Part shown: one piece after another, positions 6,706 through 63,157 of the stretch
Layout of the letters: every line of letters starts with the position of its first letter
Position numbering within the stretch: the stretch's first letter is position 1
Assembly: GCA_022376925.1 (NCBI GenBank)
Contig: JAIOJX010000004.1
Coordinates: 2,170,001 to 2,234,000 of the forward strand
Reading direction: 5' to 3'
Length of the DNA stretch: 64,000 nucleotides
Source: Tragulus kanchil
Lineage: Eukaryota; Chordata; Mammalia; Artiodactyla; Tragulidae
Notes under the pieces: model-generated
The model's input: the letters and a program-made list of their open reading frames with translations, nothing else
Told to the model about the DNA's origin: nothing
Database searches by the model: none
Made by a program: the position numbers and the translations under genes

Positions 6706-7385
6706 TGTTATGGGTAGAATTGTCGTCCCCAAAAGTGATACATTGAAGCCTTAATCCCCAGTACATGAGAATGTGACTTTACCTGGAAATATGATTGTTG
6801 TAGATGTAATTATTTAGGTTCAGATGCATTCATACTGGGGTTTCCCAGGTAGCACTAGTGGTAAATTACCTGCCTGCCAATGTAGCAGATGGAAGAGATT
6901 CAAGTTCGATCCCTGGGTCAGGAATATACCCTGGAGAAGGGCATGGCAACCCACTCCAATATTCCTGCCTAGAGAATCTCATGGCAGAGGAGCCTGGTGG
7001 GCTATATATAGTCCATGGGGTCACAAAGAGTCAGCAGAAGTGACCTAGCCATGCACACATGAGTTCATATTGGAGTAGGGTAGACCCCAATCCAGTCTGA
7101 CTGGTTTCCTTATTTAAAAAAACACAGACAAACAAAAAATGCCCTGTGAAGCGATAGAGACACAGAAGGTAACAACAAATGGAGAAATGAGGATTCTGCA
7201 GTTGCCAGCCGAGGGACACTGAGGATTGCTAGGAATCACCAGAAGCCAAGAAGAGGCAAGGGAGGGTTCTCCCTGCAGGTCTCGGAGGGAGCCTAGCCAT
7301 GCAGATGCTTGGATTTGGGGCCTCAGGCCTCCAGAATTATGAGATCAGAAGTTCCAAGCCATTCATGTTGTGGTATTTTGTGAGG
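6706..7385 (+). mobile_element. MLT1-type (MaLR) LTR interrupted by a SINE
   Basis: Starts 'tgttatgggtagaattgtc', then 'ccttaatccccagtacatga', 'gaatgtgactttacctgg'. After a SINE it continues 'ggagtagggtagacccc', 'accagaagccaagaagagg', 'ctccagaattatgag' and ends 'gtggtattttgtgagggca'. This order matches MLT1 LTRs. The later part is repeated by the tandem duplication beginning at 6891. Confidence 0.85.
6838..7055 (+). mobile_element. Bov-tA/CHR-like SINE inside the MLT1 LTR
   Basis: Head 'gggtttcccaggtagcac', B-box-like 'gttcgatccctgg', then 'gaagggcatggcaaccca' and 'agtccatggggtcacaaaga', the classic Bov-tA arrangement of tRNA part plus Bov-A part. A diverged target duplication is visible: 'ttcatactgg' before and 'ttcatattgg' after. 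Confidence 0.88.
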
Positions 7386-9064
7386 GCAGACCAAGGACAC
7401 AAAAGCAGACCACATGAAAGATAAGAAAAACATGTCATTTATTCAATAACATTTTTCAGTGAACAAAAAACTATCGAGCATCCACTAAGCTACATATTGA
7501 TCTAAGCTGTGAGGATGCAGCAGTGAACAAAACAGACAAAAGTCTCTCTCTTGTGTAGTGTGCATTCTAGTGGGGGGAAGAAAAACAAGAAACAGAATGA
7601 TAATTTCTGTAGTGTGTTGAACATTGGAAGGTGTAACAGAAGAAAGAAATGGAACCACCAGAGTAGAGGAGCTACAGTTTTCAAAAGTGTGGAGAAAGAC
7701 TGATCTCTGTTCACCTGAAACTATCACAACATTGTTTATTAATTGACTATACTCCGATACAAAATAAAATGTTAAGAAAATATATCTAGTAAAAAAAAAG
7801 TGGTCACTGAGCAGGTGACAACTGATTGACTTGGCGGGTGGAAGGAATCATGGGCATCCAGGAGAAGAGCCTGCCAGGAAAAGGGAAGCACTAGTGCAAA
7901 GGCCCTGAAGGCAGGACTGTGCCTGGCATGCTTGGAGGAAGAGTCAGGAGAATGGGAAGCTACGAGGGGCAGATATGCCAATGGGTTTCCCGGGCAGGAA
8001 TTGGAAGAGATTCAAGTTCGATCCCTGGGTCAGGAATATACCCTGAGAAGGGCATGGCAACCCACTCCAATATTCCTGCCTAGAGAATCTCATGGCAGAG
8101 GAGCCTGGTGGGCTATATATAGTCCATGGGGTCACAAAGAGTCAGCAGAAGTGACCTAGCCATGCACACATGAGTTCATATTGGAGTAGGGTAGACCCCA
8201 ATCCAGTCTGACTGGTTTCCTTATTTAAAAAAACACAGACAAACAAAAAATGCCCTGTGAAGCGATAGAGACACAGAAGGTAACAACAAATGGAGAAATG
8301 AGGATTCTGCAGTTGCCAGCCGAGGGACACTGAGGATTGCTAGGAATCACCAGAAGCCAAGAAGAGGCAAGGGAGGGTTCTCCCTGCAGGTCTCGGAGGG
8401 AGCCTAGCCATGCAGATGCTTGGATTTGGGGCCTCAGGCCTCCAGAATTATGAGATCAGAAGTTCCAAGCCATTCATGTTGTGGTATTTTGTGAGGGCAG
8501 ACCAAGGACACAAAAGCAGACCACATGAAAGATAAGAAAAACATGTCATTTATTCAATAACATTTTTCAGTGAACAAAAAACTATCGAGCATCCACTAAG
8601 CTACATATTGATCTAAGCTGTGAGGATGCAGCAGTGAACAAAACAGACAAAAGTCTCTCTCTTGTGTAGTGTGCATTCTAGTGGGGGGAAGAAAAACAAG
8701 AAACAGAATGATAATTTCTGTAGTGTGTTGAACATTGGAAGGTGTAACAGAAGAAAGAAATGGAACCACCAGAGTAGAGGAGCTACAGTTTTCAAAAGTG
8801 TGGAGAAAGACTGATCTCTGTTCACCTGAAACTATCACAACATTGTTTATTAATTGACTATACTCCGATACAAAATAAAATGTTAAGAAAATATATCTAG
8901 TAAAAAAAAAGTGGTCACTGAGCAGGTGACAACTGATTGACTTGGCGGGTGGAAGGAATCATGGGCATCCAGGAGAAGAGCCTGCCAGGAAAAGGGAAGC
9001 ACTAGTGCAAAGGCCCTGAAGGCAGGACTGTGCCTGGCATGCTTGAGGAAGAGTCAGGGAGAAT
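6891..9064 (+). repeat. ~1.1 kb tandem direct duplication A
   Basis: 6891-7955 is repeated at 8003-9064, nearly identical apart from small indels (for example 'ccctggagaagg' versus 'ccctgagaagg'). The 47-bp spacer holds 'gggtttcccgggcaggaatt', which looks like the true left flank ('gggtttcccaggtagcac' ... before 6891) with a deletion. The duplicated content is SINE, MLT1 and older repeat, so it does not follow any element boundary. Probably an unmerged assembly overlap. Confidence 0.9.
7450..7770 (+). repeat. L2-like ancient repeat (repeated at 8561-8881)
   Basis: 'gatgcagcagtgaacaaaac', 'agacaaaagtctctc' and 'gcattctagtggggg' follow a well-known ancient mammalian repeat 3' consensus that I associate with L2. 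Diverged. Confidence 0.5.
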
Positions 9065-9744
9065 GAACTCGAGCAGAATGAGAATGGGCAGGAAGCAGAG
9101 GGTACCCACAAAGGAGTCATTAAATACCATATACTATAGTGTGGGCAGAGTTAAAACCAGCAAGCATGGTGAGGCACCACAGAGCTAGGAAGACTGAGAA
9201 GCCATCAGCATCCTGAAGGGAAACCTGAAAGGACAAGAGGAAAGGACAAAAGGACAAGGCAAAGGGTTGTTGGAACCTAGCAAGAGCCGGCTGCAGACCA
9301 GGGTTGATGACAGGACCTGTGTTATTAATAGTGGGACCCAGTTGTGGCCCAACCAAGGCCATGCGTGCACAGGGCACAGAGAAATAATGCTCCGTCCTCT
9401 CACCTCCCAACTTCCATTGACCGAACACAACTGGAAGCCAAGGTGTGAGAGAGCTGAGTTGAGGATGCCAATGGAGGCCAGCTTCCCTGAGGGCACAGAG
9501 CAGGGCAGAAGATAACTGAAGATTACTCAGTACAAGGGGAGAGGTAACAGCGTCCTGAGGATGCAGGATTTACTGGACCACTTAAAAGGAGGTTGGCTTT
9601 CACTCTGAGTGAAATGGCAACTACTGCAGTGTTTCAAACAGAAGAGTGACTGTCACAGATCACTGTGATAATCTGAGCAAGAGGAGAGGGTGACTTGCCA
9701 GGGAAGTAGCAGAGAGGTGCAGCAATGTGGCAAGATTCTAGCAG
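9065..9744. other. Intergenic, ancient repeat remnants
   Basis: No supported gene. 9590-9660 ('tcactctgagtgaaatgg', 'cagaagagtgactgtcac') continues the ancient repeat consensus also seen at 5385-5645. Confidence 0.45.
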
Positions 9745-10101
9745 GGTTTTTTTGTTTTATTTATGTATTTGTTTATTTGTGGCTGTTTTAGGCTTTCACT
9801 CCTGCTGCAGGCTCTTCTCTAGTTGCAGGAAGTAGGAGCTACTCTCTAGTTGAGGTGAGCAGGCTTCTGCTTGTGGTGACATCTCATTGTGGAACTCAGG
9901 GTCTAGGGCTCATGGGGTTCAGTAGTTGCAGCACATGGGCTCAAGAGTTGTGGCTCCGAGGCTCTAGAGCACAGGCTCAATAGTTGTGGCTCATGGACTT
10001 TGTTGCTCCATAGCATGTGGGATCTTCCTGGATCTGGGATTGAACCCATGTCTCCTGCATTGGCAGGTGAACTCTTCACCACTGAGCTACCAGGGAAGCC
10101 C
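9745..10101 (-). mobile_element. CHR-2-like SINE, minus strand
   Basis: Reverse orientation of the CHR-2 body: repeated blocks 'cagtagttgcagcacatggg', 'caatagttgtggctcatgg', 'gcatgtgggatcttcctgg', B-box complement 'gggattgaaccc' and head complement 'ctaccagggaagccc'. T-rich 5' end is the reverse of its A tail. Confidence 0.9.
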
Positions 10102-11175: not shown

Positions 11176-12785
11176 AACTCTTATGATCATGTGAAAAATC
11201 CCCATCTAATCTTTACTTAAAGATCAGCAAACTAAGAACCTGGGCAACTTGCCCCAACTCACCCAGTGACAGGGCACAGCAAAGTCAGGACTTGAGCCTA
11301 GGAGGTGAGGTGACTGTGGGGCCCATGGTGCTTGCCACTCTGGTTAGTGCCCAAAGCTCAGTCAGGAAAATCAATCCCTGTCTGTGCCACATAACTAGGC
11401 AGCTGTCAGAGGTGCAGATAGGTCTCCACACTACAGGCAAGATGATGCCCAGACTTCCCTCTGCAAGGAGTGAAAGCAAGCCCCTGCCAGGGGTCAGCTG
11501 GGGAACTAGCCCAGCAGCTCAGGAAAGAGGCCTGACTGATGACCTGCTGACCAGGGCACAGGTCACCATGCCGCCAGCTCTGACCTCTCCAAGGACTGCT
11601 GACCACTCTTTCCAAAACATTACTTTCCTATTGCTTGGCTCCCACAGCCAACCTGGAGTCAAGGACAGGCAAGCAATGTCTCACCCTGGAAGGTCAGCAG
11701 TGAGAAGCGTCTCTGCAGGCACGTGTTCACTCCCCAACCCCTGAGCTCCATGAAGCCCAGGTCACCTGTTCAGCACCTTTAGGCAATTTGGTGACAACGC
11801 CTATATCAGAACTCAAACCTTGGGACTCTTAGTTCAGCTTCCATAGACCATGACAAATAAATCAGTTCATGTTTCAAAATTAGATTCGCTAGTGAGCAGG
11901 GTAGGAAACGGTGTGTGCATGCATGCCAAGGACAAGCCCTTTGGCTGACACTCCCCACCACTCCCAAGGAAAAGAATTTCTCTTCAGTCTAGTTTATCTT
12001 TAGGAAAAACTCAGGTTTCCAGGGAATGGGAGAGGAAGGAGGAGCCCTTCCATCCAGCAAGTCCACCTCAGGAGTCTTTCCTGGGCACTTAGGTACCACA
12101 GCCTGTGCAGGTGTGTGGCTGGAAACAGTGAGAAATGGAAGGGACCTGAATGCCCCTCAGTATGGAGGTGGTCAAATAGTGATGGTGCATTTAGTCAGCA
12201 GAGGAGAAAGCATGGAGCAGGCCTACACAGAGGGTCAATGGAAGACCTGTAAGACATATTCTGAAGCAAAAACTAAAGAAACCAGTTTATAGTACATACG
12301 GTGTGGTCCCATTTATGTACAAAAGCACACTATGTATGTGACTGAATGTATAAAGGGATTACATCAGCCTGATGATGATGATTTGTTCATTTGTCCCATA
12401 GGTGCTCATGGAGGGCCCCTGCTGTGCCCCACACTGGACTGTATGAGAGGACCCGCAGAGAGCAGGACAGATAGTATCCCTGCCTCCTGTAGCAGGTGAG
12501 GAAGTGGCATGGGGGTAGGGGACAAAGAACACGATGTCTTTTTACTTATGTAGTTCTGTATCACGTCAAGTTGTCCAACTAAAATGTTTCATGGTCATAA
12601 GAAATACAAAACACAGGAATAAAGAGAAGGTGGAAAAAGAAGAGAAAGAGGAGGAGAGGTGCATAGGTAAACACAGTGTATCAGGGGAAGTCGTGAGAGG
12701 GTGACTTTCAAGCTGTTGACACTCTGGATCTGACTTGAATAGGCGTCAAGTCATTCAGAGCATCGCACAATGGGCAATATCAATT
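11176..12785. other. Intergenic; MIR-like remnant, no supported gene
   Basis: About 11200-11285 resembles a MIR 3' end ('atctttacttaaag', 'gcaacttgccccaactcac'). A 150-codon open stretch at 11292-11744 shows no domain, coding composition or splice context I can support. Confidence 0.45.
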
Positions 12786-13330
12786 GGAGAATACCAGACA
12801 CAACGTCCGCAGCATCTTCAAAGGAAGAAGGCACATTTCAGTAACAAAAACTCCTGTAACTCTCCACAGTTTCTTGATGGCCTTCAGAGAGCACTGCCTG
12901 TAACTGGTTATAGCTCCAGGAAGAGACAATGTTTTAGTGTGAGGATCATCTTCTGGGGCTGATGCCATGAAAATGTTAAAGCTACACTGTCTTCTGGGCA
13001 TGTAGTCCTGCAGGCATGGCCTCCCTCCTGCCCCCATTCTGGTGCCTCCGCCCTACCAGCAACCTATTTAGAGCCCCTTCCTGCTGCTGGGATCCGAGAC
13101 TGACAGTGGAGGAGGCAGAGGAAGGAGGAGGCAAAGAAGGCTCTTCTTTTCTTCAGGCCATCGTGCCTCTACTCAGATAGTCTACCTGAGAGCAGAGGGC
13201 ATACCTACTCACACAGCCTCCCAGCCCTGGGCTTGTCTCCTCTGGGCAGAAGAATTAGGGAGACAAGCTATTGGCCAGTAAGGTAGCAGACTCCACCACC
13301 AGTCTGTTTTTATGTCTCAGCGATCAACTT

Positions 13331-13430
13331 GGGCATTAGATTTGTGGTCAGACAACCTAAGTTCGAATCCTGACCCTTGCCATTTTCAAGCTGTATACTC
13401 TTTGGCATGTTTCTTCCTTCATAAATAACA
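13331..13430 (+). repeat. MIR SINE core (copied at about 14437-14535)
   Basis: 'cattagatttgtggtcagac', 'ctaagttcgaatcctgaccc', 'ttgccattttcaagctgta' match the MIR tRNA-like and core region, including a recognisable B box 'gttcgaatcc'. The second copy arises from tandem duplication B. Confidence 0.85.
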
Positions 13431-13553
13431 ACAATAATTAATAATTATTACATTTAAATAATATTTAAATGGAGGTAACAAATAAGTCCTCCCTCACAAA
13501 GTGATTGCAAAGATATAAAAAGGTATTTATAGGTGTCTTTCATTTGTGCAAAT

Positions 13554-13575
13554 CTTGTGTGTGTGTGTGTGTGAG
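13554..13575 (+). repeat. (GT)n microsatellite, copied at about 14656-14675
   Basis: 'ttgtgtgtgtgtgtgtgtga' run; nearly identical in both copies of duplication B. Confidence 0.8.
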
Positions 13576-15002
13576 TGCATACATGCACATATCCACACAC
13601 ATAATCACTGTTGTGTTCATCTTAGACGTTTTTTCCATACATCTGGAGCTGGCAGGACTCTGAGCCAAAAGGGGCATCCTAGGTGAGCAGAATGTACCTG
13701 TCAGCTGTGACAGAGACACAATTTCAGTTCCAAGTAAAACCAAATCTGCCTATGCTTGGAGAAAGTCAGAAAGATTCCTTTCTGTTATTTCAAGCGAAGA
13801 CCCAGCTCGGCCACTCTGGCTGCATTTCAGCCCTTACTCCTCCACTGGCTAACATTTTCAGCCAACAGGAATTTTACAAGCTGTTTACTAAAGAAAGTTT
13901 GGAGAATACCAGACAACGTCAGCACTAAGAAGGCACATTTCAGTAACAAAAACTCCTGTAACTCTCCACAGTTTCTTGATGGCCTTCAGAGAGCACTGCC
14001 TGTAACTGGTTATAGCTCCAGGAAGAGACAATGTTTTAGTGTGAGGATCATCTTCTGGGGCTGATGCCATGAAAATGTTAAAGCTACACTGTCTTCTGGG
14101 CATGTAGTCCTGCAGGCATGGCCTCCCTCCTGCCCCCATTCTGGTGCCTCCGCCCTACCAGCAACCTATTTAGAGCCCCTTCCTGCTGCTGGGATCCGAG
14201 ACTGACAGTGGAGGAGGCAGAGGAAGGAGGAGGCAAAGAAGGCTCTTCTTTTCTTCAGGCCATCGTGCCTCTACTCAGATAGTCTACCTGAGAGCAGAGG
14301 GCATACCTACTCACACAGCCTCCCAGCCCTGGGCTTGTCTCCTCTGGGCAGAAGAATTAGGGAGACAAGCTATTGGCCAGTAAGGTAGCAGACTCCACCA
14401 CCAGTCTGTTTTTATGTCTCAGCGATCAACTTGGGCATTAGATTTGTGGTCAGACAACCTAAGTTCGAATCCTGACCCTTGCCATTTTCAAGCTGTATAC
14501 TCTTTGGCATGTTTCTTCCTTCATAAATAACAACAATAATTAATAATTATTACATTTAAATAATATTTAAATGGAGGTAACAAATAAGTCCTCCCTCACA
14601 AAGTGATTGCAAAGATATAAAAAGGTATTTATAGGTGTCTTTCATTTGTGCAAATCTTGTGTGTGTGTGTGTGTGAGTGCATACATGCACATATCCACAC
14701 ACATAATCACTGTTGTGTTCATCTTAGACGTTTTTTCCATACATCTGGAGCTGGCAGGACTCTGAGCCAAAAGGGGCATCCTAGGTGAGCAGAATGTACC
14801 TGTCAGCTGTGACAGAGACACAATTTCAGTTCCAAGTAAAACCAAATCTGCCTATGCTTGGAGAAAGTCAGAAAGATTCCTTTCTGTTATTTCAAGCGAA
14901 GACATCCAGCCTCGGCCACTCTGGCTGCATTTCAGCCCTTACTCCTCCACTGGCTAACATTTTCAGCCAACAGGAATTTTACAAGCTGTTTACTAAAGAA
15001 AG

Positions 15003-16031: not shown

Positions 16032-16274
16032 TCCAACACCTTCCTCAAGCAACACCTATCTAATAATACAAGATCAGAATTACTTTAATCTACACAAAAC
16101 CGCATATGTACAGAGGTCAAGGAAACAAACAAAACAAGCTTATCATATGTGCATTATAACTTAAAAGGTTTTAGCAATATGTGAGCATCCAGGGAAAAGT
16201 AGGAAAGGAAAACCATTTAAAAAGGGTAGCCAAGGTTTCACACAGACTTTAACATGGATGTGAAGTATCTGGTG

Positions 16275-16500
16275 TGGTAGACAGAGCAGTGGGTGCCAAA
16301 GATGCCCTAACTCCCATAACCTGTGAATATGTTACCTTTGCTGACTAAAGAGACTTCATCGATATGATTTAAGTTATGCAAGTTTAGAAGGGGAGGTTTT
16401 TTGGATTATCCAGGTGTAATCACATAGATCTTTATAAGTGGGAGGTAAGAGAGTCAGAGTCAAAAGAAGAGGTGATAGCAGGACTAGGAGCAGAGGTCAG
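16275..16500 (+). repeat. Ancient LTR-like repeat (MLT/MaLR-like), copied at 17410-17635
   Basis: 'cctgtgaatatgttaccttt', 'aaagagacttcatcgatatg', 'ggattatccaggtgtaatca', 'tttataagtgggaggtaaga' follow a common ancient mammalian LTR-type consensus. Exact family not certain. Confidence 0.55.
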
Positions 16501-16544
16501 AGTCAATGCAAAGCATCTGAAGATGCTATTACCATGCTGGCTTT

Positions 16545-16755
16545 AAATGAAAGAAGGTCCAGTAGTAAAGAATCTGCCTGAAATGCAGGAGACACAGGAG
16601 ATGTTGGTTCAGTCCTTGGGTGGGGAAGATCCTCTGGAGGAGGGCATGACAACCCACTCCAGTACTCTTGCCTGGAAAATCCCATGGACAGAGGAGGACT
16701 GCGGTCCATGGGGCCTCAAAGAGTCTGACACGATTGAAGCATCTTAGCACAGCAC
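16545..16755 (+). mobile_element. Bov-tA-like SINE (copied at 17680-17890)
   Basis: 'gtagtaaagaatctgcctga', 'ggttcagtccttgggt', 'gggcatgacaacccactcca', 'cctggaaaatcccatggac', 'ggcctcaaagagtctgacac' give the Bov-tA order. The head is decayed and the second copy comes from duplication C. Confidence 0.88.
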
Positions 16756-18477
16756 AGCACGTTCTGAGAGCTTCCCCTTCATCCTCTGTTTCTGCCCACC
16801 CCCGCCCCCCGTTTATTTGCCTCACAGACTGTAATTGTAAATCTGGGTGTTTATTATCTCCCTCCTCCTGTGTCAAGCCACCCCACCCTCACAGCGCCTG
16901 AGAGAATAGGCTCTCCTACGTGAATGAATGAACCAGAGGTTAAGCACTCAGTTCTTTTGTCAAATAAATGCCAAAATCTCTCACATCTTGTTTGTATGAC
17001 TGAGTTTTTTAAGCTACAGAATCCAAACATTTACATTGATCCAAGGAGCTATATCTTCTCAGACTGGATCTATGCTCCAACTAGATGAAATATCTGAATA
17101 TTGCCCATTTTTTCCCCCAAAACCCTAGAGTAGCTTTCACCTTTACAAAAACAAACCGCAAAAATGTCCAACACCTTCCTCAAGCAACACCTATCTAATA
17201 ATACAAGATCAGAATTACTTTAATCTACACAAAACCGCATATGTACAGAGGTCAAGGAAACAAACAAAACAAGCTTATCATATGTGCATTATAACTTAAA
17301 AGGTTTTAGCAATATGTGAGCATCCAGGGAAAAGTAGGAAAGGAAAACCATTTAAAAAGGGTAGCCAAGGTTTCACACAGACTTTAACATGGATGTGAAG
17401 TATCTGGTGTGGTAGACAGAGCAGTGGGTGCCAAAGATGCCCTAACTCCCATAACCTGTGAATATGTTACCTTTGCTGACTAAAGAGACTTCATCGATAT
17501 GATTTAAGTTATGCAAGTTTAGAAGGGGAGGTTTTTTGGATTATCCAGGTGTAATCACATAGATCTTTATAAGTGGGAGGTAAGAGAGTCAGAGTCAAAA
17601 GAAGAGGTGATAGCAGGACTAGGAGCAGAGGTCAGAGTCAATGCAAAGCATCTGAAGATGCTATTACCATGCTGGCTTTAAATGAAAGAAGGTCCAGTAG
17701 TAAAGAATCTGCCTGAAATGCAGGAGACACAGGAGATGTTGGTTCAGTCCTTGGGTGGGGAAGATCCTCTGGAGGAGGGCATGACAACCCACTCCAGTAC
17801 TCTTGCCTGGAAAATCCCATGGACAGAGGAGGACTGCGGTCCATGGGGCCTCAAAGAGTCTGACACGATTGAAGCATCTTAGCACAGCACAGCACGTTCT
17901 GAGAGCTTCCCCTTCATCCTCTGTTTCTGCCCACCCCCGCCCCCCGTTTATTTGCCTCACAGACTGTAATTGTAAATCTGGGTGTTTATTATCTCCCTCC
18001 TCCTGTGTCAAGCCACCCCACCCTCACAGCGCCTGAGAGAATAGGCTCTCCTACGTGAATGAATGAACCAGAGGTTAAGCACTCAGTTCTTTTGTCAAAT
18101 AAATGCCAAAATCTCTCACATCTTGTTTGTATGACTGAGTTTTTTAAGCTACAGAATCCAAACATTTACATTGATCCAAGGAGCTATATCTTCTCAGACT
18201 GGATCTATGCTCCAACTAGATGAAATACATCTGAATATTGATCTTTCTCACCCATGTTCAAGATTTCTCCCTCAGTTTGAAAAACCTGCTATATCAGGTT
18301 AGTTCCTACACAGCAAACTCTGGAAGATTTGCAGGCAGAAAGCTTATGGGAGGAATGGGTTGCAATGCAGACACTGGTTCAGGCAGGAAGCAGGCATGGC
18401 CCTTCAAGTTTGCCTTAACTGGGACGTGTCTTAAATGTGTCCAGTAACAACCAGTCACTGGACTGGTTACATTCCCG

Positions 18478-20558
18478 TGAAAACCAGTCATTGCCGGTAG
18501 GCTGCCCCAGAAGGGGACACAATCTGGAGTTGGCACCCTTCAGTTCTTGGTAAGCCCCAAAGAGCTGTCAACTTTAAAATGTTCCCAGAAGTAAAGGCAG
18601 AAATGAGCCAGTGGTGATCAGTGAGAAGTTAGGAAGAGTTCCCAACACTCACCTTGTTTCCTCAGTCACTGGGGGGAAAGAAACTATTAAAAGTCAGGAT
18701 AAAGGTCTGTGTCACACCAGAATGAACCAGAGAGGAATAGACTAAAGATGCAAGAAAGAGGAAGATCACTGACACAGAAGGGTCCAGAGAGGGAAAACTA
18801 GAGTGGGAAACGGTCTTGCTATCTTGAGACAGGGCTCCTCAGAGGCGGGCTACCTGGAAAATGTGATGTGTGAAGGCATCAAGAATATATGGAGGAAAGA
18901 GGCAGGCATTTGGGGTAGGTCACAGGTAGGGCCCAGTATAAATGGGAAATGGGGGAAGCGTATATGGGTCATAGAATTAGAAGCTGATTAGAAAGGAGTA
19001 AGAGGACTGCTGGGCACTGTGAGGGATGGGTGGGTTGGCTATTAGGAGTTTGCATGGGGCCAGTGATGGGAGCTTATGTCTTCCTTTCAGTAGCCTCAAA
19101 ACAAAGCAGGGGCGGCAGACAGTTCCCAGTGGGCAAAGCAGGAGTGGCAGGGAGACACTGGGCTGAGAGAATCAGTGGCTGGAGAGAGTCACCAGTTGGG
19201 TGCCTCAGCATCAGGACAAGGAGCCCAAGATGTGTGGAAAGGGATATGAGCACAGGCATGACACAAGGTCCTAAGAAGAATGTCCAACAGATGTGGGAGG
19301 GTGCCGAGAGAGGAGAACAGAAAGTTGGAGGTAATGGAGGGAAATTTCAGAGGCGTTTAGAAAGGTACAGGGCAAGAGGGAGTGCCTGTAGAGTGGGGGT
19401 GAGGCAAGTACCATCCTGCAGGAGAGGCAGATAATCTGCTTAAAATGACATCATTTCATAGTGACACATGCATGGAAATGTACACACTACACATGGAGTG
19501 AAAAGTGTGAGTCCTTGAAAACCAGTCAAGTTAAAGGCCGGTAGGCTGCCCCAGAGGGGGACACAATCTGGAGTTGGCACCCTTCAGTTCTTGGTAAGCC
19601 CCAAAGAGCTGTCAACTTTAAAATGTTCCCAGAAGTAAAGGCAGAAATGAGCCAGTGGTGATCAGTGAGAAGTTAGGAAGAGTTCCCAACACTCACCTTG
19701 TTTCCTCAGTCACTGGGGGGAAAGAAACTATTAAAAGTCAGGATAAAGGTCTGTGTCACACCAGAATGAACCAGAGAGGAATAGACTAAAGATGCAAGAA
19801 AGAGGAAGATCACTGACACAGAAGGGTCCAGAGAGGGAAAACTAGAGTGGGAAACGGTCTTGCTATCTTGAGACAGGGCTCCTCAGAGGCGGGCTACCTG
19901 GAAAATGTGATGTGTGAAGGCATCAAGAATATATGGAGGAAAGAGGCAGGCATTTGGGGTAGGTCACAGGTAGGGCCCAGTATAAATGGGAAATGGGGGA
20001 AGCGTATATGGGTCATAGAATTAGAAGCTGATTAGAAAGGAGTAAGAGGACTGCTGGGCACTGTGAGGGATGGGTGGGTTGGCTATTAGGAGTTTGCATG
20101 GGGCCAGTGATGGGAGCTTATGTCTTCCTTTCAGTAGCCTCAAAACAAAGCAGGGGCGGCAGACAGTTCCCAGTGGGCAAAGCAGGAGTGGCAGGGAGAC
20201 ACTGGGCTGAGAGAATCAGTGGCTGGAGAGAGTCACCAGTTGGGTGCCTCAGCATCAGGACAAGGAGCCCAAGATGTGTGGAAAGGGATATGAGCACAGG
20301 CATGACACAAGGTCCTAAGAAGAATGTCCAACAGATGTGGGAGGGTGCCGAGAGAGGAGAACAGAAAGTTGGAGGTAATGGAGGGAAATTTCAGAGGCGT
20401 TTAGAAAGGTACAGGGCAAGAGGGAGTGCCTGTAGAGTGGGGGTGAGGCAAGTACCATCCTGCAGGAGAGGCAGATAATCTGCTTAAAATGACATCATTT
20501 CATAGTGACACATGCATGGAAATGTACACACTACACATGGAGTGAAAAGTGTGAGTCC
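18478..20558 (+). repeat. ~1.04 kb tandem direct duplication D
   Basis: 18478-19514 is repeated at 19516-20558 (offset 1044 over most of its length), abutting with a one-base gap. Copies differ in short runs such as 'ccagaagggg' versus 'ccagaggggg' and near the start ('gtcattgccgg' versus 'gtcaagttaaaggccgg'). The content is purine-rich single-copy sequence. The 134-codon ORF seen in both (19030 and 20074) has no recognisable coding character. Confidence 0.9.
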
Positions 20559-22224: not shown

Positions 22225-22420
22225 TGAGAGTGACAGTTAAGATACAATAACGACTTTGTGTGGATGCACTGTGCTAAGTATTTTAATGAGTTTGCTTGTT
22301 TCATACCTCACAGCCACCCAGTCAGGTAGTTACAGTCAGTATCACCATCCACAGATGAAGAATTTCAAAGCCTGGGAGGCTGAGTAAGTTTCCGAAGTTC
22401 ACACGTCTGGAAAGTGATGC
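22225..22420 (+). repeat. MIR SINE fragment (part copied from 23443)
   Basis: 'gatgcactgtgctaagtatt', 'catacctcacagccaccca', 'atcaccatccacagatgaag', 'gagtaagtttccgaagttca' follow the MIR 3' consensus. Confidence 0.75.
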
Positions 22421-23153
22421 AGCCACGATGGCAGTATGAATACAGAGCTGGGCTCTTGACCAGGACACCGAAAGGCTGTCCTGATAAATGCTTTGGCAAA
22501 GAATAACAGAGCCAGCATTTGTAGAACCTTAAAGTATGGAGACTGGAAGAAATATTGAAGATGACCTGAGTGGCGGGTGGTCATTCAACACATAGTGATT
22601 AAGTACCAACCGTGGGGCAGGCATTCACTAATATAGTTTTAGGAGGGAAGGTAAGTACAGTGGTAAAGTCAGCAGACACATCTACCATGAGCTAACATTC
22701 TCCTTGGAAAGAGAGATGATAAATAATTGTAACAAATGAGGCAGCAATAAGGGTATGAAGGCGAGGCAGGGACAGAAGTGAGGAGACTACTCACTTAGAG
22801 GAGAGCCTCTAAGCTCTTATCCACTTGTCCAGCCCCCACCTTCTACACTTGAGGAAAATGAGGCAGAGCCGGCCCTGACCTGCTCAAGACCACACCACAC
22901 CCAGCTGGTTAGAAGCAGAGTTGGAAGTGACGCTGTCTTCCTGCAAAGCAGGTCCTATCTTCACAGCCTCTCTCTTGAAAGGTCTATTTTCCTATCATTG
23001 TCTAGTCCTTAGAGCTCACTATCGAAGGAGGGAAACAGCGCTCAAGCACCCCCGCGTTGGCCCCAGGACATAGAATCCCATCCATTCCCCTTCACAGCCC
23101 AGGACCCTGGGAGAAGCCTGGGAGGGGCGGAGCCTGGACACGCGCCGGCGCGT

Positions 23154-23168
23154 CCAGCAGGTGGCAGC
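23154..23168 (+). promoter_or_regulatory. CTCF core motif, copy 1
   Basis: ccagcaggtggcagc is a perfect match to the CTCF core consensus. It lies about 60 bp upstream of the candidate ATG and in the duplicated segment. See the copy at 24282. Confidence 0.7.
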
Positions 23169-23224
23169 AGTGAGCAGCGCCCCTCTACCCCCAACCCCAT
23201 GCGGCCACTCGGCGAGCCCGCATC

Positions 23225-23362
23225 ATGGATGTTGAGCTCTTTCATTTCGCTTCTCTTGCCTTGGAATTCGAGACCCCAGACGAGGACCAGGACATGAACT
23301 GGTCTCATGGGCCCGGGCAGGGGCCTGTGGCTCCCGACGCTGACCGAAATGTGGGTCCCAGG
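23225..23362 (+). CDS. Candidate coding first exon, duplicate copy
   Basis: Sequence-identical partner of the candidate exon at 24356-24493, ending at the donor 'gtgagt' at 23363. It lies in the left copy of duplication E and is followed by the corrupted 62-bp spacer. The right-hand copy, which runs into coherent CpG-rich downstream sequence, is the better representation. If the duplication is an assembly error this entry is the same locus counted twice. Confidence 0.35.
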
Positions 23363-24296: not shown

Positions 24297-24355
24297 AGTG
24301 AGCAGCCGCGCCCCTCTACCCCCAACCCCATGCGGCCACTCGGCGAGCCCGCATC

Positions 24356-35339: not shown

Positions 35340-35351
35340 TTTTTTTTTAAT

Positions 35352-55062: not shown

Positions 55063-55860
55063 ACGAGGGATTCAAAGTCCTGCTGAAAGCACATTGCAGC
55101 CTTTCATATCCTGGCTGTGGCAGCAGGAGGTCCAGGGAGATTGGGAGGGGCATCCCAGCCCTCAGGACCCATAGTCTTTGCACTCTCAGGCCTCTGACTA
55201 GGGAGCAACTCCTCCCTGCCTCTCTGCAGATTGCTTCATGCCTACCAGGCTGTGGCACATTCCACATATTCTAGGATTGAGATACCCAGTTTGGTTCCTG
55301 TGGAGGAAGTCAGGCCATGGGAGGAGGGCTGAGAGCATCCCAGGATTCAAAGCTTGCCCCCTCCTTGACTGGTTTGGCCCACACTGATTCACCTGCCACT
55401 GGGAAAACGGTCCTCACCCAGCCTCTCTTTGCAAACACCTCCCTTGGCTATCTGGGTCAAGCTGGAGCTGTGGATGCAGCATCTCACCTCACCCTCACCA
55501 GCATCGATGAGCCAACCCCGAGCCCTGGTTCCCAAAGTCTTGGTCAGAAGAAATCCAGGAAATATCCGGATGTAGCCCAACATTTTACAGGTGAGAGGAT
55601 GGAGGACCAGGTATGTTAAGGCTGTGCATGAAGTCTAGCTGCATGAAACAAACCTCATTTGCTTTTTGGACAGTCAGCTGGGCAGGGGCATGCAGTTGAC
55701 TTAGCAAGCTGAACTTTAGAAAAGCCTCCCATGAGATCTTGCAGATGAGATGGGGAAAAAAAAATGAACTGGACCCAAATAACATTAGATAGATTGATGA
55801 CTGATTTAAAGACTACTAATAAATTACTTAATGCTCCCCTGGATACTCTCTTCAAAGCAG
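55063..55860 (+). repeat. Diverged dispersed repeat, copy 2 (partner at 2893-3960)
   Basis: Begins 'acgagggattcaaagtcctg' against 'atgagggaccaagtccagct' at 2899, and shares ordered blocks to about 55860. It lacks the SINE present in the partner. The portion from 55133 is repeated again at 56223 by tandem duplication K. Confidence 0.75.
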
Positions 55861-57306
55861 GTTCTTAGTCACAGCTCTTATTCCATTCCAGGCCAAATTT
55901 TAATACTCTTGGATAAAGGCAGAAATTTACTCCTTTAAATAGTATTGAGTGCCTACTCTGTACTGGGCACTCATGTTACTCTCAAGTGAAAATAGCCCCA
56001 GCACTACCAGAACCTGCCATCCACTGAGCACTCAGAGGCCATCAGAGTATAACACAAGGGGCTGTGAGTAAGGTCTGTGACAGGGAGGAAGACTCGTACT
56101 GTCAGACCCCTACTGTTAAAGAGGGATTCATCTGGGGTTGGGGAATCAAGGAAGAGTTCCCTACAGACGTGACTTTTAAGTTAATGTCTGAAAGATACAC
56201 ATGAATTACAAAGACAAGGTTTCAGGGAGATTGGGAGGGGCATCCCAGCCCTCAGGACCCATAGTCTTTGCACTCTCAGGCCTCTGACTAGGGAGCAACT
56301 CCTCCCTGCCTCTCTGCAGATTGCTTCATGCCTACCAGGCTGTGGCACATTCCACATATTCTAGGATTGAGATACCCAGTTTGGTTCCTGTGGAGGAAGT
56401 CAGGCCATGGGAGGAGGGCTGAGAGCATCCCAGGATTCAAAGCTTGCCCCCTCCTTGACTGGTTTGGCCCACACTGATTCACCTGCCACTGGGAAAACGG
56501 TCCTCACCCAGCCTCTCTTTGCAAACACCTCCCTTGGCTATCTGGGTCAAGCTGGAGCTGTGGATGCAGCATCTCACCTCACCCTCACCAGCATCGATGA
56601 GCCAACCCCGAGCCCTGGTTCCCAAAGTCTTGGTCAGAAGAAATCCAGGAAATATCCGGATGTAGCCCAACATTTTACAGGTGAGAGGATGGAGGACCAG
56701 GTATGTTAAGGCTGTGCATGAAGTCTAGCTGCATGAAACAAACCTCATTTGCTTTTTGGACAGTCAGCTGGGCAGGGGCATGCAGTTGACTTAGCAAGCT
56801 GAACTTTAGAAAAGCCTCCCATGAGATCTTGCAGATGAGATGGGGAAAAAATGAACTGGACCCAAATAACATTAGATAGATTGATGACTGATTTAAAGAC
56901 TACTAATAAATTACTTAATGCTCCCCTGGATACTCTCTTCAAAGCAGGTTCTTAGTCACAGCTCTTATTCCATTCCAGGCCAAATTTTAATACTCTTGGA
57001 TAAAGGCAGAAATTTACTCCTTTAAATAGTATTGAGTGCCTACTCTGTACTGGGCACTCATGTTACTCTCAAGTGAAAATAGCCCCAGCACTACCAGAAC
57101 CTGCCATCCACTGAGCACTCAGAGGCCATCAGAGTATAACACAAGGGGCTGTGAGTAAGGTCTGTGACAGGGAGGAAGACTCGTACTGTCAGACCCCTAC
57201 TGTTAAAGAGGGGATTCATCTGGGGTTGGGGGGAATCAAGGAAGAGTTCCCTACAGACGTGACTTTTAAGTTAATGTCTGAAAGATACACATGAATTACA
57301 AAGACA
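55133..57306 (+). repeat. ~1.09 kb tandem direct duplication K
   Basis: 55133-56220 is repeated at 56223-57306 (offset 1090, later 1087 through an A-run difference: 'ggggaaaaaaaaatg' versus 'ggggaaaaaatg'). Abutting with two bases between. Confidence 0.92.
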
Positions 57307-57313
57307 AAAGGTA

Positions 57314-57570
57314 GGGCTTCCCCTGGTGGTCCAGTGGGTAAAGACACCGCCTTGCAGTGCAAGGGGCGCTGGTCTGGGAAGATCCCACGTGCTGCGGAGC
57401 GGCTGGACCGATGTGTCCAATTACCGAGCCGGAGCTCTGGCGCGCGTGCGCCCAGAGCCGGTGCTCTGTGACGACAGTGGCCACCGCGATGGGAGGCCCA
57501 CACGGGCCAAAGAACAAAAGACGGATGAAAATGGAGAAATGAAAGACCAAGAGAAGTGGCCCGCCCATCC
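57314..57570 (+). mobile_element. CHR-like GC-bodied SINE lacking its B box
   Basis: Head 'gggcttcccctggtggtcca', body 'gagccggagctctggcgcgc', 'gcccagagccggtgctctg', 'gggaggcccacacgggcc'; CpG-rich, so young. The B-box segment is deleted: 'gcgctggtctgggaagatcc' runs straight from head to body where relatives have 'ttgatccctggcc'. Followed by poly-C then poly-A. Confidence 0.9.
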
Positions 57571-57574
57571 CCCC

Positions 57575-57605
<31 letters not shown>

Positions 57606-57620
57606 AAAAAAAAAAAAAAA
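57571..57620 (+). repeat. Poly-C/poly-A homopolymer tract
   Basis: A pure C run of about 27 directly followed by an A run of about 24. The partner copy at 58711-58760 reads as an interrupted C-rich sequence with t and a bases, so the pure run may be a base-calling or consensus product. Confidence 0.85.
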
Positions 57621-57956
57621 GACAAAAGGTAAACAGCTCCAGAGAGAGGACCTGCCTATGCCTCTGAGACCCTGTGCCAGGAAGCCAATGTGACCAGTGT
57701 GAAGGAATGAAAGGCCAGTGAGCCAGGGAGTCATGAGGACCTGCATTCATCTGCTGGAATATAAGCTCTATGAGGGTAGAGGATTTGTACTATTTTTCTC
57801 TTAGCTATATCCCCAGTGCCTAGAGCTGTGCCTACCACATGGTAGGTACTGAGGAATAGTAACAGAATGAATGGATGGATGCATGCTGATGAGTGTATAA
57901 GAGATATGAACAATTGAAATATTATAGGGCTTTAGACAATGGGATGTTATTTTATA

Positions 57957-58165
57957 GAGGCTTCCTGAGTGGCTTAGATTGTTTAAAAAAAAATCTGCCT
58001 GAAATGCAGGAGGCCCAGGTTTGATCTTAGGGTTGGGAAGATCCCCTTGAGAAGAGAATGGCTACCCACTCCAGTATTCTTGCGTGGAGAATTCCATCGA
58101 CAGAGGCTGTAGTCTATGGGATCTCAGAATCAGACACGGCTGGCAACTTACACTTTCACTTTTGA
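57957..58165 (+). mobile_element. Bov-tA-like SINE (copied at 59097-59305)
   Basis: 'ggcttcctgagtggcttaga', 'atctgcctgaaatgcaggag', 'ggtttgatcttagggttgg', 'ctacccactccagtattctt', 'cgacagaggctgtagtctat'; Bov-tA order, head decayed. Confidence 0.88.
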
Positions 58166-58456
58166 GTAAGATGTTGTGAACTTTTTTTAAACTCTCCAAT
58201 AGTTTTGAGGCCTCTCTGTAGGGCATCATGTTACTCTCAAGTGAAAAAGCCCCGTGACAGGATGAGCACTCAGAGGCCTCAAAAACGGGGCTGTGAGTAA
58301 GGTCTGTGACAGGGAGGAAGACTCGTACTGTCAGACCCCTACTGTTAAAGAGGGGATTCATCTGGGGTTGGGGGGAATCAAGGAAGAGTTCCCTACAGAC
58401 GTGACTTTTAAGTTAATGTCTGAAAGATACACATGAATTACAAAGACAAAAGGTAG

Positions 58457-58710
58457 GGCTTCCCCTGGTGGTCCAGTGGGTAAAGACACCGCCTTGCAGT
58501 GCAAGGGGCGCTGGTCTGGGAAGATCCCACGTGCTGCGGAGCGGCTGGACCGATGTGTCCAATTACCGAGCCGGAGCTCTGGCGCGCGTGCGCCCAGAGC
58601 CGGTGCTCTGTGACGACAGTGGCCACCGCGATGGGAGGCCCACACGGGCCAAAGAACAAAAGACGGATGAAAATGGAGAAATGAAAGACCAAGAGAAGTG
58701 GCCCGCCCAT
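58457..58710 (+). mobile_element. CHR-like GC-bodied SINE, second copy from duplication L
   Basis: Same element as 57314, including the missing B box, followed by an interrupted C-rich tract. Not an independent insertion. Confidence 0.9.
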
Positions 58711-59322
58711 CCCCCTCCCTCCCCACCCCACCCCCCAAAAGATAAAAAAAAAAAAAAAAAGACAAAAGGTAAACAGCTCCAGAGAGAGGACCTGCCTATG
58801 CCTCTGAGACCCTGTGCCAGGAAGCCAATGTGACCAGTGTGAAGGAATGAAAGGCCAGTGAGCCAGGGAGTCATGAGGACCTGCATTCATCTGCTGGAAT
58901 ATAAGCTCTATGAGGGTAGAGGATTTGTACTATTTTTCTCTTAGCTATATCCCCAGTGCCTAGAGCTGTGCCTACCACATGGTAGGTACTGAGGAATAGT
59001 AACAGAATGAATGGATGGATGCATGCTGATGAGTGTATAAGAGATATGAACAATTGAAATATTATAGGGCTTTAGACAATGGGATGTTATTTTATAGAGG
59101 CTTCCTGAGTGGCTTAGATTGTTTAAAAAAAAATCTGCCTGAAATGCAGGAGGCCCAGGTTTGATCTTAGGGTTGGGAAGATCCCCTTGAGAAGAGAATG
59201 GCTACCCACTCCAGTATTCTTGCGTGGAGAATTCCATCGACAGAGGCTGTAGTCTATGGGATCTCAGAATCAGACACGGCTGGCAACTTACACTTTCACT
59301 TTTGAGTAAGATGTTGTGAACT

Positions 59323-60559
59323 GTTTTGTAGAAAGTAGCCTGGCTTCAGGGTAGAGAAAAGACTGGAGGAAGTGGGGATTAGATGTGTGTGACCAGTTAG
59401 GATAAACTTTCCATTTCTGGATGAAGATTAGACTAAGCGGGGGTACTGCAGAGAGAACAAAGTGGAGAGTGTTGAGGGGTATTCAGGAGACTTGGGAAGG
59501 AACTGCCATGCGTGAGCTGGTGAAAGCCATTGGAGGGGGCACAGAGGGTACATAAGAACACAGAATCAGAATCATTATCTCAAAAAGTCTGAAGGAAATG
59601 TCACAGTAAGATAACAAGCAAATAAAATACATGTAAAACTCTTAACTCAAAGTACACTCAGAAATACAATGACACAAGTATAGGATGGGAAAGACTAACA
59701 AACAACACAGAGAAGAAACATGTCAGAGTGTTAAGTACCTTCAATTCCAAGCAAGAATTATCTGTAAATGAGACTACAAACATGAATGCAATTTAGACCA
59801 CACCAGGAGACTTACTGTGCAAGAAAATGAGATGGCAAATCCTTCGGTACTCTGGGCCGGCTGATGGAACCATGCATTCAGCTCTAGGTGACAGATATTA
59901 AAACAGACATTTATCAACTGGAACTTCTTTAGAAAAAGGACACTAATAAGTCACTAAAATAAGTCAATACATCAAGGGGTACCTCAGTTAACAGAGGGCA
60001 TTTAGCAAACATGAGAAAAAACTCAGAGGGAATAGTCACATTCCAGGGCCTAGAGGCTCTCATGAGAGTGAGAGATTATATTCTAATATAGTCTCTGGGA
60101 GTCTAATCCAGGATGGGTGTTATAGGAACAAAGATTTCCACTTAGCGACAGAAAGTTTTCTAAATCAGTCTGTCGCCAAATAGAAGTCTCCAGCAAGCCT
60201 GGAGCCTCTCCTGAGGGAGAATAAGCAGATGCAGGCTGGGAGAAGGCAGGGCCAGGTCATGAAACACAGGGCCTGTGCTTCTGGCTGCTTGGATTCTGAA
60301 CTTGATCTCAAAGCTACATGGAAATCTCAGGAGCATTTTAAGGAGGGCAGCAGCCTGTTCTAGTTTATATCCTGGGAGGAACCCTTCAGTATTGCAGATA
60401 CCCTGGGCATCAACCTCTCAGGAGAGGTCAGCCAGCGGTATCCAAAATAGGCACCAGCTCATACCCAAGTGCTGGCCCTCTGCCTGGGATTGCAATGAAC
60501 CTATAGGTCAACCTGGGGAGAAATGACATCTTGACAGCATTGACTATTCCAATCCATGG
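59323..60559. other. Intergenic, no supported gene
   Basis: Old repeat remnant at about 60245-60360 ('gggccaggtcatgaaacaca', 'gggcagcagcctgttct') resembling the family at 5385. Otherwise unassigned; the 83-codon ORF at 60275 overlaps that remnant. Confidence 0.45.
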
Positions 60560-61256
60560 ATGCAGTCTGTCTTTCTACTCATGAAGTCTAGTTCAGTTTC
60601 TCTCATCAATGCTTCATAAATGTGAGCATGTAAATCTTGTATATATTTTTGTTAGACTTACCTCTCTGTTTTTCATGTTTTGGGTACTGTTACATTGTTT
60701 GTAGAGACTTTAGGATTTCCTATATAGATAAAAAGTAAAGACAATTTTTATTCTTTCCTTTTTAATCTTAATGTCATTTATTTCTAGTTCTTATCTTCAA
60801 TGCAGTTTTGAATAGTAGTGAGACTGGATATCCTTGCCTTCTTCCTGATCTTAGAATAAGCATTCAGTCTTTCATACAGTAAATATGAAGTCAGCTATAC
60901 ATTCTCATGGTTGATCTTTTATGAGGTTGAAGAACCTCCCTATTATTTCTAGTTTCTTGAGATATTTTATTATGAATGGATGTTGAGTTTGCTAAAAGTA
61001 CTTTTTCTGCAGCTATTGAGATAATCTTTTTATCTGTTGTTATTGTGATTACATTGATTAATTTTCTTTTCTTTTTTAATTTATTTTCAAATATTGAACT
61101 AACCTTGCATTACAGTTATAAATAAAACCACTTGTTCATCATGTGTTATCCTTTTTATATGTTGCCAAGGGCTTTTGCATCTGTGTCTGTGGGGGATATT
61201 TGAGCTATAGATTTCTTTTTATGTAATGTCTTTGTCTGGTTTTAATTTTAGACTGA

Positions 61257-61634
61257 TGTGGGAAAACAGCTGGGAACTGCTCTGTACTCATAAAACAATT
61301 ATCTTAAGAGTTATGTTTCCTTGGGTCAGTCCACCAAGGAATTCTGTGGTCCCTTTGGCCAGATACTGGTGCAGACTTTGGAACACCCGGTCATGCTTAA
61401 TCAGAACACTGAGCACGTATACCATGTCTGCACCAGGGGGCTCACTGACTTCTTGACTGACGTCTCTTGGTAAGTGCATAACTCTCTGCTTTAAAGGCTA
61501 AATAAATATGATGAGGACTTTGTGCACAGGGCCCTTGATCCATGAGGTCTTGATTCCCCTGTCCCATCTTTAACTTGCTGTCTGTCTTTGTGTTTCTTAT
61601 GTTCTGCGGCACCCGTCACTCGTCCCAAGCCTCA
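61257..61634 (+). mobile_element. Class II (betaretrovirus-like) ERV solo LTR (copied at 62353-62730)
   Basis: About 378 bp starting 'tgtgggaaaacagctgggaa' and ending 'cgtcccaagcctca' (TG...CA). It contains 'ggctaaataaatatgatgag' (TATA- or polyadenylation-like) and 'tttgtgtttcttatgttctg' near the end, typical of ERV2-type artiodactyl LTRs. No internal viral genes flank it, so it is a solo LTR left by recombination. No clear 6-bp target duplication is visible. The second copy comes from duplication M. Confidence 0.75.
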
Positions 61635-61821
61635 GTAGGTTGATATTGGATTCATAAAATTAATTGAAAATTAATCATCTTCCATGTTTTGGAAAAAAAT
61701 CTCTAGAATTAATATTATTCTTCCATTAAGTGTTTGGTAAAAGTCACCACCAAACTCATATAGGCTAGGGTTTTTCTTTTTCAGAGGGTTTTCAGGTACA
61801 AATTTAGTTTTTTTTCTTTTT

Positions 61822-62032
61822 TTGCCTCTAAGTCATGGTTTATTTTCATCCATCTTTATTCTCTGGCATATGTGTGCCTCCTATTGAAGTGGCCACTCTT
61901 GCTGCAGAGCCCTGGCTCTGAGCTCATGCACTCCAGAGTGCTGGCTCATAATTGAACATACTGACCCAGCTGCTCCATGGATCTTCTGGAGCCAGGGATC
62001 GAACCGATGCCGCTTACACTGCAAGGCAATCT
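61822..62032 (-). mobile_element. CHR-like GC-bodied SINE, truncated by a duplication junction
   Basis: Same element as 62918-63157, but cut off at 'gcaaggcaatct' where duplication M joins. Confidence 0.88.
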
Positions 62033-62917
62033 TGTTTTTGTGATTACATTGATTAATTTTCTTTTCTTTTTAATTTATTTTCAAATATTGTAGCTAACTT
62101 TCTGCAGCTATTGAGATAATCTTTTTATCTGTTGTTATTGTGATTACATTGATTAATTTTCTTTTCTTTTTTAATTTATTTTCAAATATTGAACTAACCT
62201 TGCATTACAGTTATAAATAAAACCACTTGTTCATCATGTGTTATCCTTTTTTATATGTTGCCAAGGGCTTTTGCATCTGTGTCTGTGGGGGATATTTGAG
62301 CTATAGATTTCTTTTTATGTAATGTCTTTGTCTGGTTTTAATTTTAGACTGATGTGGGAAAACAGCTGGGAACTGCTCTGTACTCATAAAACAATTATCT
62401 TAAGAGTTATGTTTCCTTGGGTCAGTCCACCAAGGAATTCTGTGGTCCCTTTGGCCAGATACTGGTGCAGACTTTGGAACACCCGGTCATGCTTAATCAG
62501 AACACTGAGCACGTATACCATGTCTGCACCAGGGGGCTCACTGACTTCTTGACTGACGTCTCTTGGTAAGTGCATAACTCTCTGCTTTAAAGGCTAAATA
62601 AATATGATGAGGACTTTGTGCACAGGGCCCTTGATCCATGAGGTCTTGATTCCCCTGTCCCATCTTTAACTTGCTGTCTGTCTTTGTGTTTCTTATGTTC
62701 TGCGGCACCCGTCACTCGTCCCAAGCCTCAGTAGGTTGATATTGGATTCATAAAATTAATTGAAAATTAATCATCTTCCATGTTTTGGAAAAAAATCTCT
62801 AGAATTAATATTATTCTTCCATTAAGTGTTTGGTAAAAGTCACCACCAAACTCATATAGGCTAGGGTTTTTCTTTTTCAGAGGGTTTTCAGGTACAAATT
62901 TAGTTTTTTTTCTTTTT

Positions 62918-63157
62918 TTGCCTCTAAGTCATGGTTTATTTTCATCCATCTTTATTCTCTGGCATATGTGTGCCTCCTATTGAAGTGGCCACTCTTGCTG
63001 CAGAGCCCTGGCTCTGAGCTCATGCACTCCAGAGTGCTGGCTCATAATTGAACATACTGACCCAGCTGCTCCATGGATCTTCTGGAGCCAGGGATCGAAC
63101 CGATGCCGCTTACACTGCAAGGCAATCTTTTTACCCACTGGACCACCAGGGAAGCCC
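62918..63157 (-). mobile_element. CHR-like GC-bodied SINE, minus strand, complete
   Basis: Tail complement 'catccatctttattctctgg', body 'agagccctggctctgagctc', B-box complement 'gggatcgaaccg', head complement 'ggaccaccagggaagcccc'. Flanked by 'caaattta' on the left and 'caaattta' on the right as a short target duplication. Confidence 0.9.

What the first reader, a model, noticed from the sequence alone, without database searches (positions are those of the whole stretch)
6891..63128. Fourteen ~1.1 kb tandem direct duplications spread over the window, probably a systematic assembly error
Fourteen segments of 1.03-1.29 kb are each followed by a near-identical direct copy (offsets about 1038-1292 bp, summing to about 15.6 kb). 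Content is unrelated between sites (single-copy DNA, SINE, L1 ORF2, 5'UTR, LTR) and boundaries ignore element ends. Only copy length is conserved. Copies differ mainly by short indels and homopolymer lengths. No biological process I know duplicates arbitrary ~1.1 kb blocks every 2-7 kb; contig or read-chunk overlaps left unmerged would do so. If real, it would be extraordinary.
Basis: partly seen in the sequence, partly recalled or inferred. Interest (0 to 1): 0.9.

Follow-up and report, generated by a model that had tools for sequence, protein, structure and literature searches.

The report
Assembly error: unmerged 1.1-kb overlaps

Summary
The window holds 14 direct near-tandem pairs with modal offsets of 1044-1290 bases and 15,576 excess bases, 24.3% of the window. 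They are not local. I took 20 stretches of 10 kb at round coordinates on 12 of the 32 contigs of the same 3.17-Gb assembly; 19 of 20 hold such pairs: 56 pairs, 27.9% excess. In window and samples together the 60 complete pairs have a median offset of 1114, sd 44.

Three features point to an assembly error. (1) Copies differ by indels more than substitutions (130 gap events, 57 mismatches in 70.3 kb); one-base indels favour homopolymers and differences crowd at copy ends. (2) The spacer between copies resembles its own outer flank (0 of 2000 permutations as high). (3) Content is arbitrary; one L1 ORF2 is restarted twice.

Best explanation: consensus blocks of noisy long reads, overlapping by one fixed-size unit, were concatenated without merging. 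A wtdbg-type assembler (1024-bp vertices) fits the length, but its name is inference, and a 256-base step was not detected. Biological interest is low; the practical warning is real.

The parts
6890..9065 (+). Site 1: copy 1 6890-7954, spacer 47, copy 2 8002-9065; offset 1111
   Evidence: 1063 identities, 0 mismatches, 3 gap bases
12784..15002 (+). Site 2: copy 1 12784-13897, spacer 1, copy 2 13899-15002; offset 1102
   Evidence: 0 mismatches, 16 gap bases, 13 of them in the first 35 bases of the copy
16032..18240 (+). Site 3: copy 1 16032-17103, spacer 63 (resembles the left flank), copy 2 17167-18240; offset 1135
   Evidence: 0 mismatches, 2 gap bases
18493..20558 (+). Site 4: copy 1 18493-19514, spacer 22 (resembles the left flank), copy 2 19537-20558; offset 1044
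   Evidence: 1 mismatch, no gap
22311..24511 (+). Site 5: copy 1 22311-23380, spacer 62 (no better match to its flanks than shuffles), copy 2 23443-24511; offset 1127-1132
   Evidence: 0 mismatches, 9 gap bases
24809..26896 (+). Site 6: copy 1 24809-25845, spacer 9 (like the start of the right flank), copy 2 25855-26896; offset 1046; contains a 27-base VNTR
   Evidence: 974 identities, 7 mismatches, 117 gap bases, from 25349 onwards
29570..31717 (+). Site 7: copy 1 29570-30642, spacer 4 (equals the start of the right flank), copy 2 30647-31717; offset 1075-1078; inside L1 ORF2
   Evidence: 0 mismatches, 4 gap bases
32445..34522 (+). Site 8: copy 1 32445-33488, spacer 11 (equals the start of the right flank), copy 2 33500-34522; offset mainly 1053; inside L1 ORF2
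   Evidence: 1 mismatch, 23 gap bases (one gap of 20)
35008..37578 (+). Site 9: copy 1 35008-36288, spacer 11 (equals the start of the right flank), copy 2 36300-37578; offset 1290-1292
   Evidence: 5 mismatches, 4 gap bases
42294..44552 (+). Site 10: copy 1 42294-43420, spacer 12, copy 2 43433-44552; offset 1132-1139
   Evidence: 4 mismatches, 7 gap bases
48636..50845 (+). Site 11: copy 1 48636-49712, spacer 55 (resembles the right flank in local alignment), copy 2 49768-50845; offset 1132
   Evidence: 0 mismatches, 1 gap base
55133..57301 (+). Site 12: copy 1 55133-56211, spacer 11, copy 2 56223-57301; offset 1087-1090; copy 2 overlaps copy 1 of site 13
   Evidence: 0 mismatches, 6 gap bases; further match at offset 2229-2232
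57059..59327 (+). Site 13: copy 1 57059-58186 (clean from 57145), spacer 40 (resembles the left flank in local alignment), copy 2 58227-59327; offset 1140-1142
   Evidence: 8 mismatches, 35 gap bases, 32 of them in the first 90 bases
61004..63129 (+). Site 14: copy 1 61004-62033, spacer 65 (no better match to its flanks than shuffles), copy 2 62099-63129; offset 1096
   Evidence: 0 mismatches, 1 gap base

Best explanation
Assembly artefact. The contig was written as a chain of consensus blocks built from error-prone long reads, neighbouring blocks overlapping by about one fixed-size unit (roughly 1.0-1.3 kb in the finished sequence). At many joins the overlap was not recognised and merged, so the block ending in unit B was followed directly by the next block beginning with B. 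The result is left flank, B, a ragged tail of the first block and/or a ragged head of the next, B again, right flank. The likely source is a wtdbg-type fuzzy-Bruijn-graph assembler, whose vertices are 1024-base read segments: 1024 bases measured on raw reads with net deletions become slightly longer in the finished sequence. Shown: the pairs, their recurrence in sampled loci across the assembly, narrow length, indel-dominated differences, crowding at copy ends, and flank-like spacers. Inferred: that reads would not support the second copy, and the assembler type (about 0.5).
For: Recurrence: 19 of 20 sampled 10-kb loci, on 11 of 12 contigs sampled, hold 56 pairs; 22 of 42 SINE matches outside the window lie in pairs 1072-1148 bases apart (best 40 of 9687 candidates scored). 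Narrow size: 60 complete pairs have offsets 1024-1290, median 1114, sd 44. In 66 of 70 pairs: 57 mismatches against 130 gap events in 70,296 aligned bases; 32 of 67 one-base indels in runs of 4 or more, where 9.6% of bases lie; 16 pairs identical; differences by decile of the copy 71, 23, 4, 5, 26, 12, 7, 2, 7, 30. Spacers of 20 bases or more (29) match their own outer flanks, mean 17.8 against 8.95 for other sites' flanks, 0 of 2000 permutations as high, own flank best in 19 of 29. Pair starts, with duplicates discounted, are never closer than 702 bases in 46 intervals (mean 2059; 1.6e-7 under an exponential). L1 ORF2: residues 176-387 and 813-1061 of human ORF2p are met twice in order. Vertex of 1024 bp in wtdbg2: passages of PMC7506008 and PMC10989838.
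Against: No reads, depth or independent assembly of the species could be examined. A test for a regular step (such as 256 bases) in the distances between pair starts was negative (best Rayleigh 0.26, n = 39). In a stricter test of each spacer anchored to its flanks, 4 of 13 spacers (sites 5, 11, 13, 14) were unremarkable; by local alignment sites 5 and 14 remain no better than shuffles. The differences also have a smaller bump in the middle of the copies (fifth decile, 26 of 187), and copy limits were set at the outermost shared 20-mers, which may add to the crowding at the ends. The second L1 of the window sided with copy 1 at 27 of 31 differing columns, with copy 2 at 2, whereas the model predicts faults at the 3' end of copy 1 as well as the 5' start of copy 2; this covers two sites, and one 20-base gap makes up most of it. 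One sampled locus of 20 (L014) has no pair. No paper describing exactly this artefact appeared in the listings.
Confidence: 0.97

Rival explanations
1. Artefact of gap filling or scaffolding rather than of the contig assembler: roughly 1-kb anchor ends of short contigs were kept both in the contig and in the long-read filler.
For: It would also give near-constant length, direct orientation and noisy joins.
Against: Anchors defined on finished contigs should have one exact length; copies here vary (first copy 1002-1254), as if the unit were fixed on raw reads (inference). Anchors should also come two per gap; no such alternation was tested.
Confidence: 0.2
2. Heterotype false duplication: the two copies are the two parental haplotypes placed side by side.
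For: A few pairs carry several mismatches (sites 9, 10, 13 in the window: 5, 4, 8).
Against: 40 of 66 pairs have no mismatch, gap events outnumber mismatches by more than two to one, and differences crowd at copy ends. Haplotype blocks would also not have a fixed 1.1-kb length (inference).
Confidence: 0.02
3. Real tandem duplications in the animal, produced genome-wide by an unknown process with a 1.1-kb length scale.
For: The letters are in an assembly with contigs up to 297 Mb, and the copies are nearly tandem.
Against: About a quarter of the sampled sequence would be surplus, nearly identical between copies, with indels exceeding substitutions and flank-like DNA in the spacers.
Confidence: 0.005

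Closest known systems
Homotype false duplication (Genome Biol 2022, PMC9516828, passages seen)
   Same: The same DNA is written twice in an assembly because error-bearing reads were not collapsed; same-scaffold pairs are counted there.
   Different: Here it recurs at one length of about 1.1 kb and makes up about a quarter of the sampled sequence; in the six assemblies tabulated there homotype duplication was at most 2.7%. Here the copies are joined by a few noisy bases, not by an N gap.
Overlapping consensus blocks of wtdbg2 (Ruan and Li 2020; paper not held; known from passages in PMC7506008, PMC10989838, PMC9915519)
   Same: Vertices are 1024-bp read segments, close to the repeated length; contigs are laid out as overlapping reads and a separate program writes the consensus.
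   Different: I found no description of wtdbg2 leaving a shared segment unmerged (listings), and a 256-base bin step (bin size recalled) was not detected.
Tandem segmental duplication
   Same: Direct, near-adjacent, high-identity copies.
   Different: One narrow length, about one per 3-5 kb in window and sampled loci, indel-dominated differences, noisy flank-like spacers.

Membership tests
Homotype false duplication | Copies differ by sequencing-type errors, not haplotype variants | tested here: met
   130 gap events against 57 mismatches; 40 of 66 pairs without a mismatch
Homotype false duplication | Read depth below haploid level, no haplotype-specific k-mers | not testable with these tools
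   no reads available
Homotype false duplication | Gap (N) between the two copies on one scaffold (listed as a characteristic in PMC9516828) | tested here: not met
   no N in the window; spacers are short real letters. This is an accompanying sign rather than the definition; I claim 'works like', not formal membership.
wtdbg-type unmerged vertex | Repeated unit about 1024 bases as measured on raw reads | tested here: inconclusive
   first-copy length median 1092, range 1002-1254; fits only if raw reads have net deletions
wtdbg-type unmerged vertex | Distances between units in steps of one 256-base bin (bin size recalled) | tested here: not met
   Rayleigh at most 0.26 for periods 180-399, n = 39; a variable indel bias could blur a real step
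wtdbg-type unmerged vertex | Assembler named in the record | not testable with these tools
Tandem segmental duplication | Copies adjacent and direct | tested here: met
Tandem segmental duplication | Differences dominated by substitutions, spread along the copy | tested here: not met
   indels exceed mismatches and differences crowd at the copy ends (that substitutions should dominate is general knowledge)

The most novel reading that the evidence does not exclude
The genome of this animal (a ruminant by its repeats, recalled) really carries private 1.1-kb tandem duplications over about a quarter of its sampled length, made in one recent burst by a process with a fixed length scale.
Probability: 0.005. 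Interest if true: 1.

Novelty: not a real feature. Interest (0 to 1): 0.12.

Why it matters
If the sampling is representative, roughly a quarter of this chromosome-scale assembly is false. Exons, regulatory elements and transposons would be counted twice, reading frames broken at the joins, and copy-number, gene-gain and repeat studies misled. The signature (direct pairs at 1.02-1.29 kb, indel-rich, noisy spacer) is simple enough to screen other assemblies with a self-comparison.

Tried and rejected
A regular step in the distances between pair starts was looked for and not found. A strict anchored test of the spacers against their flanks gave mixed results by site; the pooled local test was clear. 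Using the window's second, antisense L1 to decide which copy is faulty gave 27 of 31 columns for copy 1 and 2 for copy 2 at two sites, dominated by one 20-base gap, so it was not used as support. Rfam at gathering thresholds and ARAGORN found nothing in the window. Paper searches for the species, for wtdbg2 details or for this artefact were seen as listings; passages only were seen of PMC7506008, PMC10989838, PMC9516828 and PMC9915519. The planned check whether a single-copy RNA gene (RNase MRP) appears once or twice could not be done because the genome server did not answer.
Full report
What is there. A 24-mer self-comparison of the window and gapped alignment recover 14 direct near-tandem pairs between 6890 and 63129. 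Modal offsets run from 1044 to 1290, copies are 1,022-1,281 bases long, and the bases between copies number 1-65. The offsets sum to 15,576 bases, 24.3% of the window. The second copy of site 12 overlaps the first copy of site 13. Site 6 contains a 27-base VNTR, so its pair is less clean.

It recurs across the assembly. The window lies in an assembly of 3,167,203,957 bases in 32 contigs. A SINE-containing query from site 1 gave 44 matches there, with only the best 40 of 9687 candidates scored. Two are the window's own pair, and 22 of the other 42 form eleven same-strand pairs 1072-1148 bases apart on eight contigs. I then fetched 20 stretches of 10 kb at round coordinates on 12 contigs. Of these, 19 hold at least one pair; L014, the only stretch sampled on C4, holds none. 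The 20 loci hold 56 pairs with an excess of 55,879 of 200,000 bases, 27.9%. Extrapolated, removing the excess would shrink 3.17 Gb to about 2.3-2.4 Gb. That is at the low end for a ruminant (recalled), so genome size is not an independent check.

One length only. In the window and the 20 loci, repeats with at least 200 exact 24-mer matches were sought at offsets of 200 to 6000 bases. Of 75 found, 70 lie at 1024-1290 and 5 at about the sum of two successive offsets, where neighbouring units overlap by 265-336 bases. The 60 complete pairs have median offset 1114 and sd 44. With duplicates discounted, pair starts are never closer than 702 bases in 46 intervals of mean 2059; randomly placed events would give this with probability about 1.6e-7. 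In one search no repeat core exceeds 1254 bases, so close pairs were not fused by the grouping. This is what a tiling scheme would give. A regular step in these distances was not detected.

Error-type differences. In 66 of the 70 pairs there are 57 mismatches and 130 gap events in 70,296 aligned bases. Four pairs were left out by rule: an N inside, a visible copy under 600 bases, or the VNTR site. Of 67 one-base indels, 32 are in runs of four or more identical bases, where 9.6% of bases lie. Sixteen pairs are identical and 40 have no mismatch. Differences crowd at the ends of the copies, with a smaller bump in the fifth decile: 71, 23, 4, 5, 26, 12, 7, 2, 7, 30. Copy limits were the outermost shared 20-mers, which may add to the crowding. 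Real duplications would show mainly substitutions spread along the copy (general knowledge).

The spacers resemble flank. One search shows several: the spacers of sites 3, 4 and 13 match their left flanks and that of site 11 its right flank better than 100 shuffles, and those of sites 8 and 9 equal the start of the right flank; sites 5 and 14 show nothing above shuffles. In a pooled test, 29 spacers of 20 bases or more score 17.8 on average against their own outer flanks and 8.95 against those of other sites. None of 2000 permutations reaches the observed mean, and the own flank is best in 19 of 29. A stricter anchored test by site was mixed: of 13 spacers tested, sites 5, 11, 13 and 14 were unremarkable. 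Ragged, poorly covered ends of two consensus blocks would look like this.

Arbitrary content. The blocks take in SINE sequence (two matches at 16654 and 17789, and two at 58066 and 59206, are members of pairs, pattern recalled) and cut twice into one L1 ORF2. Five open frames in order match human ORF2p residues 6-526, 176-387, 426-1061, 813-1062 and 1089-1272, so the protein runs forward, jumps back, runs on, jumps back and finishes. The second L1 of the window, on the other strand, matches the whole of each of these two repeated stretches in a single alignment at 93-95%, so the doubling is not a property of the L1 family. As a witness of which copy is faulty it sided with copy 1 at 27 of 31 columns, which the model does not predict in particular.

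Mechanism. The unit varies a little in finished bases but clusters just above 1024. wtdbg2 uses 1024-bp read segments as graph vertices (passages of PMC7506008 and PMC10989838) and computes consensus in a separate program over overlapping reads (passage of PMC9915519). If consecutive blocks share one vertex and the overlap is not merged, the vertex is written twice, with ragged ends between (inference). Raw reads with net deletions would make 1024 raw bases slightly longer in the finished sequence. I hold this assembler type at about 0.5. The record is unnamed, the wtdbg2 paper itself was not held, and a 256-base step was not detected. A gap-filling step that kept its anchors is the main technical rival.

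Verdict. It is an assembly artefact, close in kind to homotype false duplication (PMC9516828, passages) but far denser than the homotype share tabulated there. Reads were not available, so the final proof is outstanding.

Noticed in passing
window 28135-35011 (+) and 37165-41927 (-): Two L1 elements in opposite orientation with 3' ends facing. A 315-aa frame before ORF2 in the first is taken as ORF1 (position, recalled); the second matches the first at about 93-95% over the two stretches compared.
   Followed up: partly
window around 25262-25349 and its copy about 1046 bases on: A 27-base tandem repeat, seen as an offset ladder 1019, 1046, 1073, 1100, 1127, 1154, 1181; the two copies of site 6 differ by many gaps from there on.
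   Followed up: no
L014 (G000:C4:15000001-15010000): The one sampled 10-kb locus of 20 with no pair; compatible with chance at this density (inference), but it could mark a region assembled otherwise.
   Followed up: no
L025 3193-3492 and L026 9496-9644: Runs of 300 and 149 N inside sampled loci: gaps or withheld stretches, not resolved.
   Followed up: no
G000 contigs C2, C3, C15, C23: Three contigs of 292-297 Mb and one of 249 Mb; with inflation removed these would still be large for a ruminant and suggest a low chromosome number (inference).
   Followed up: no
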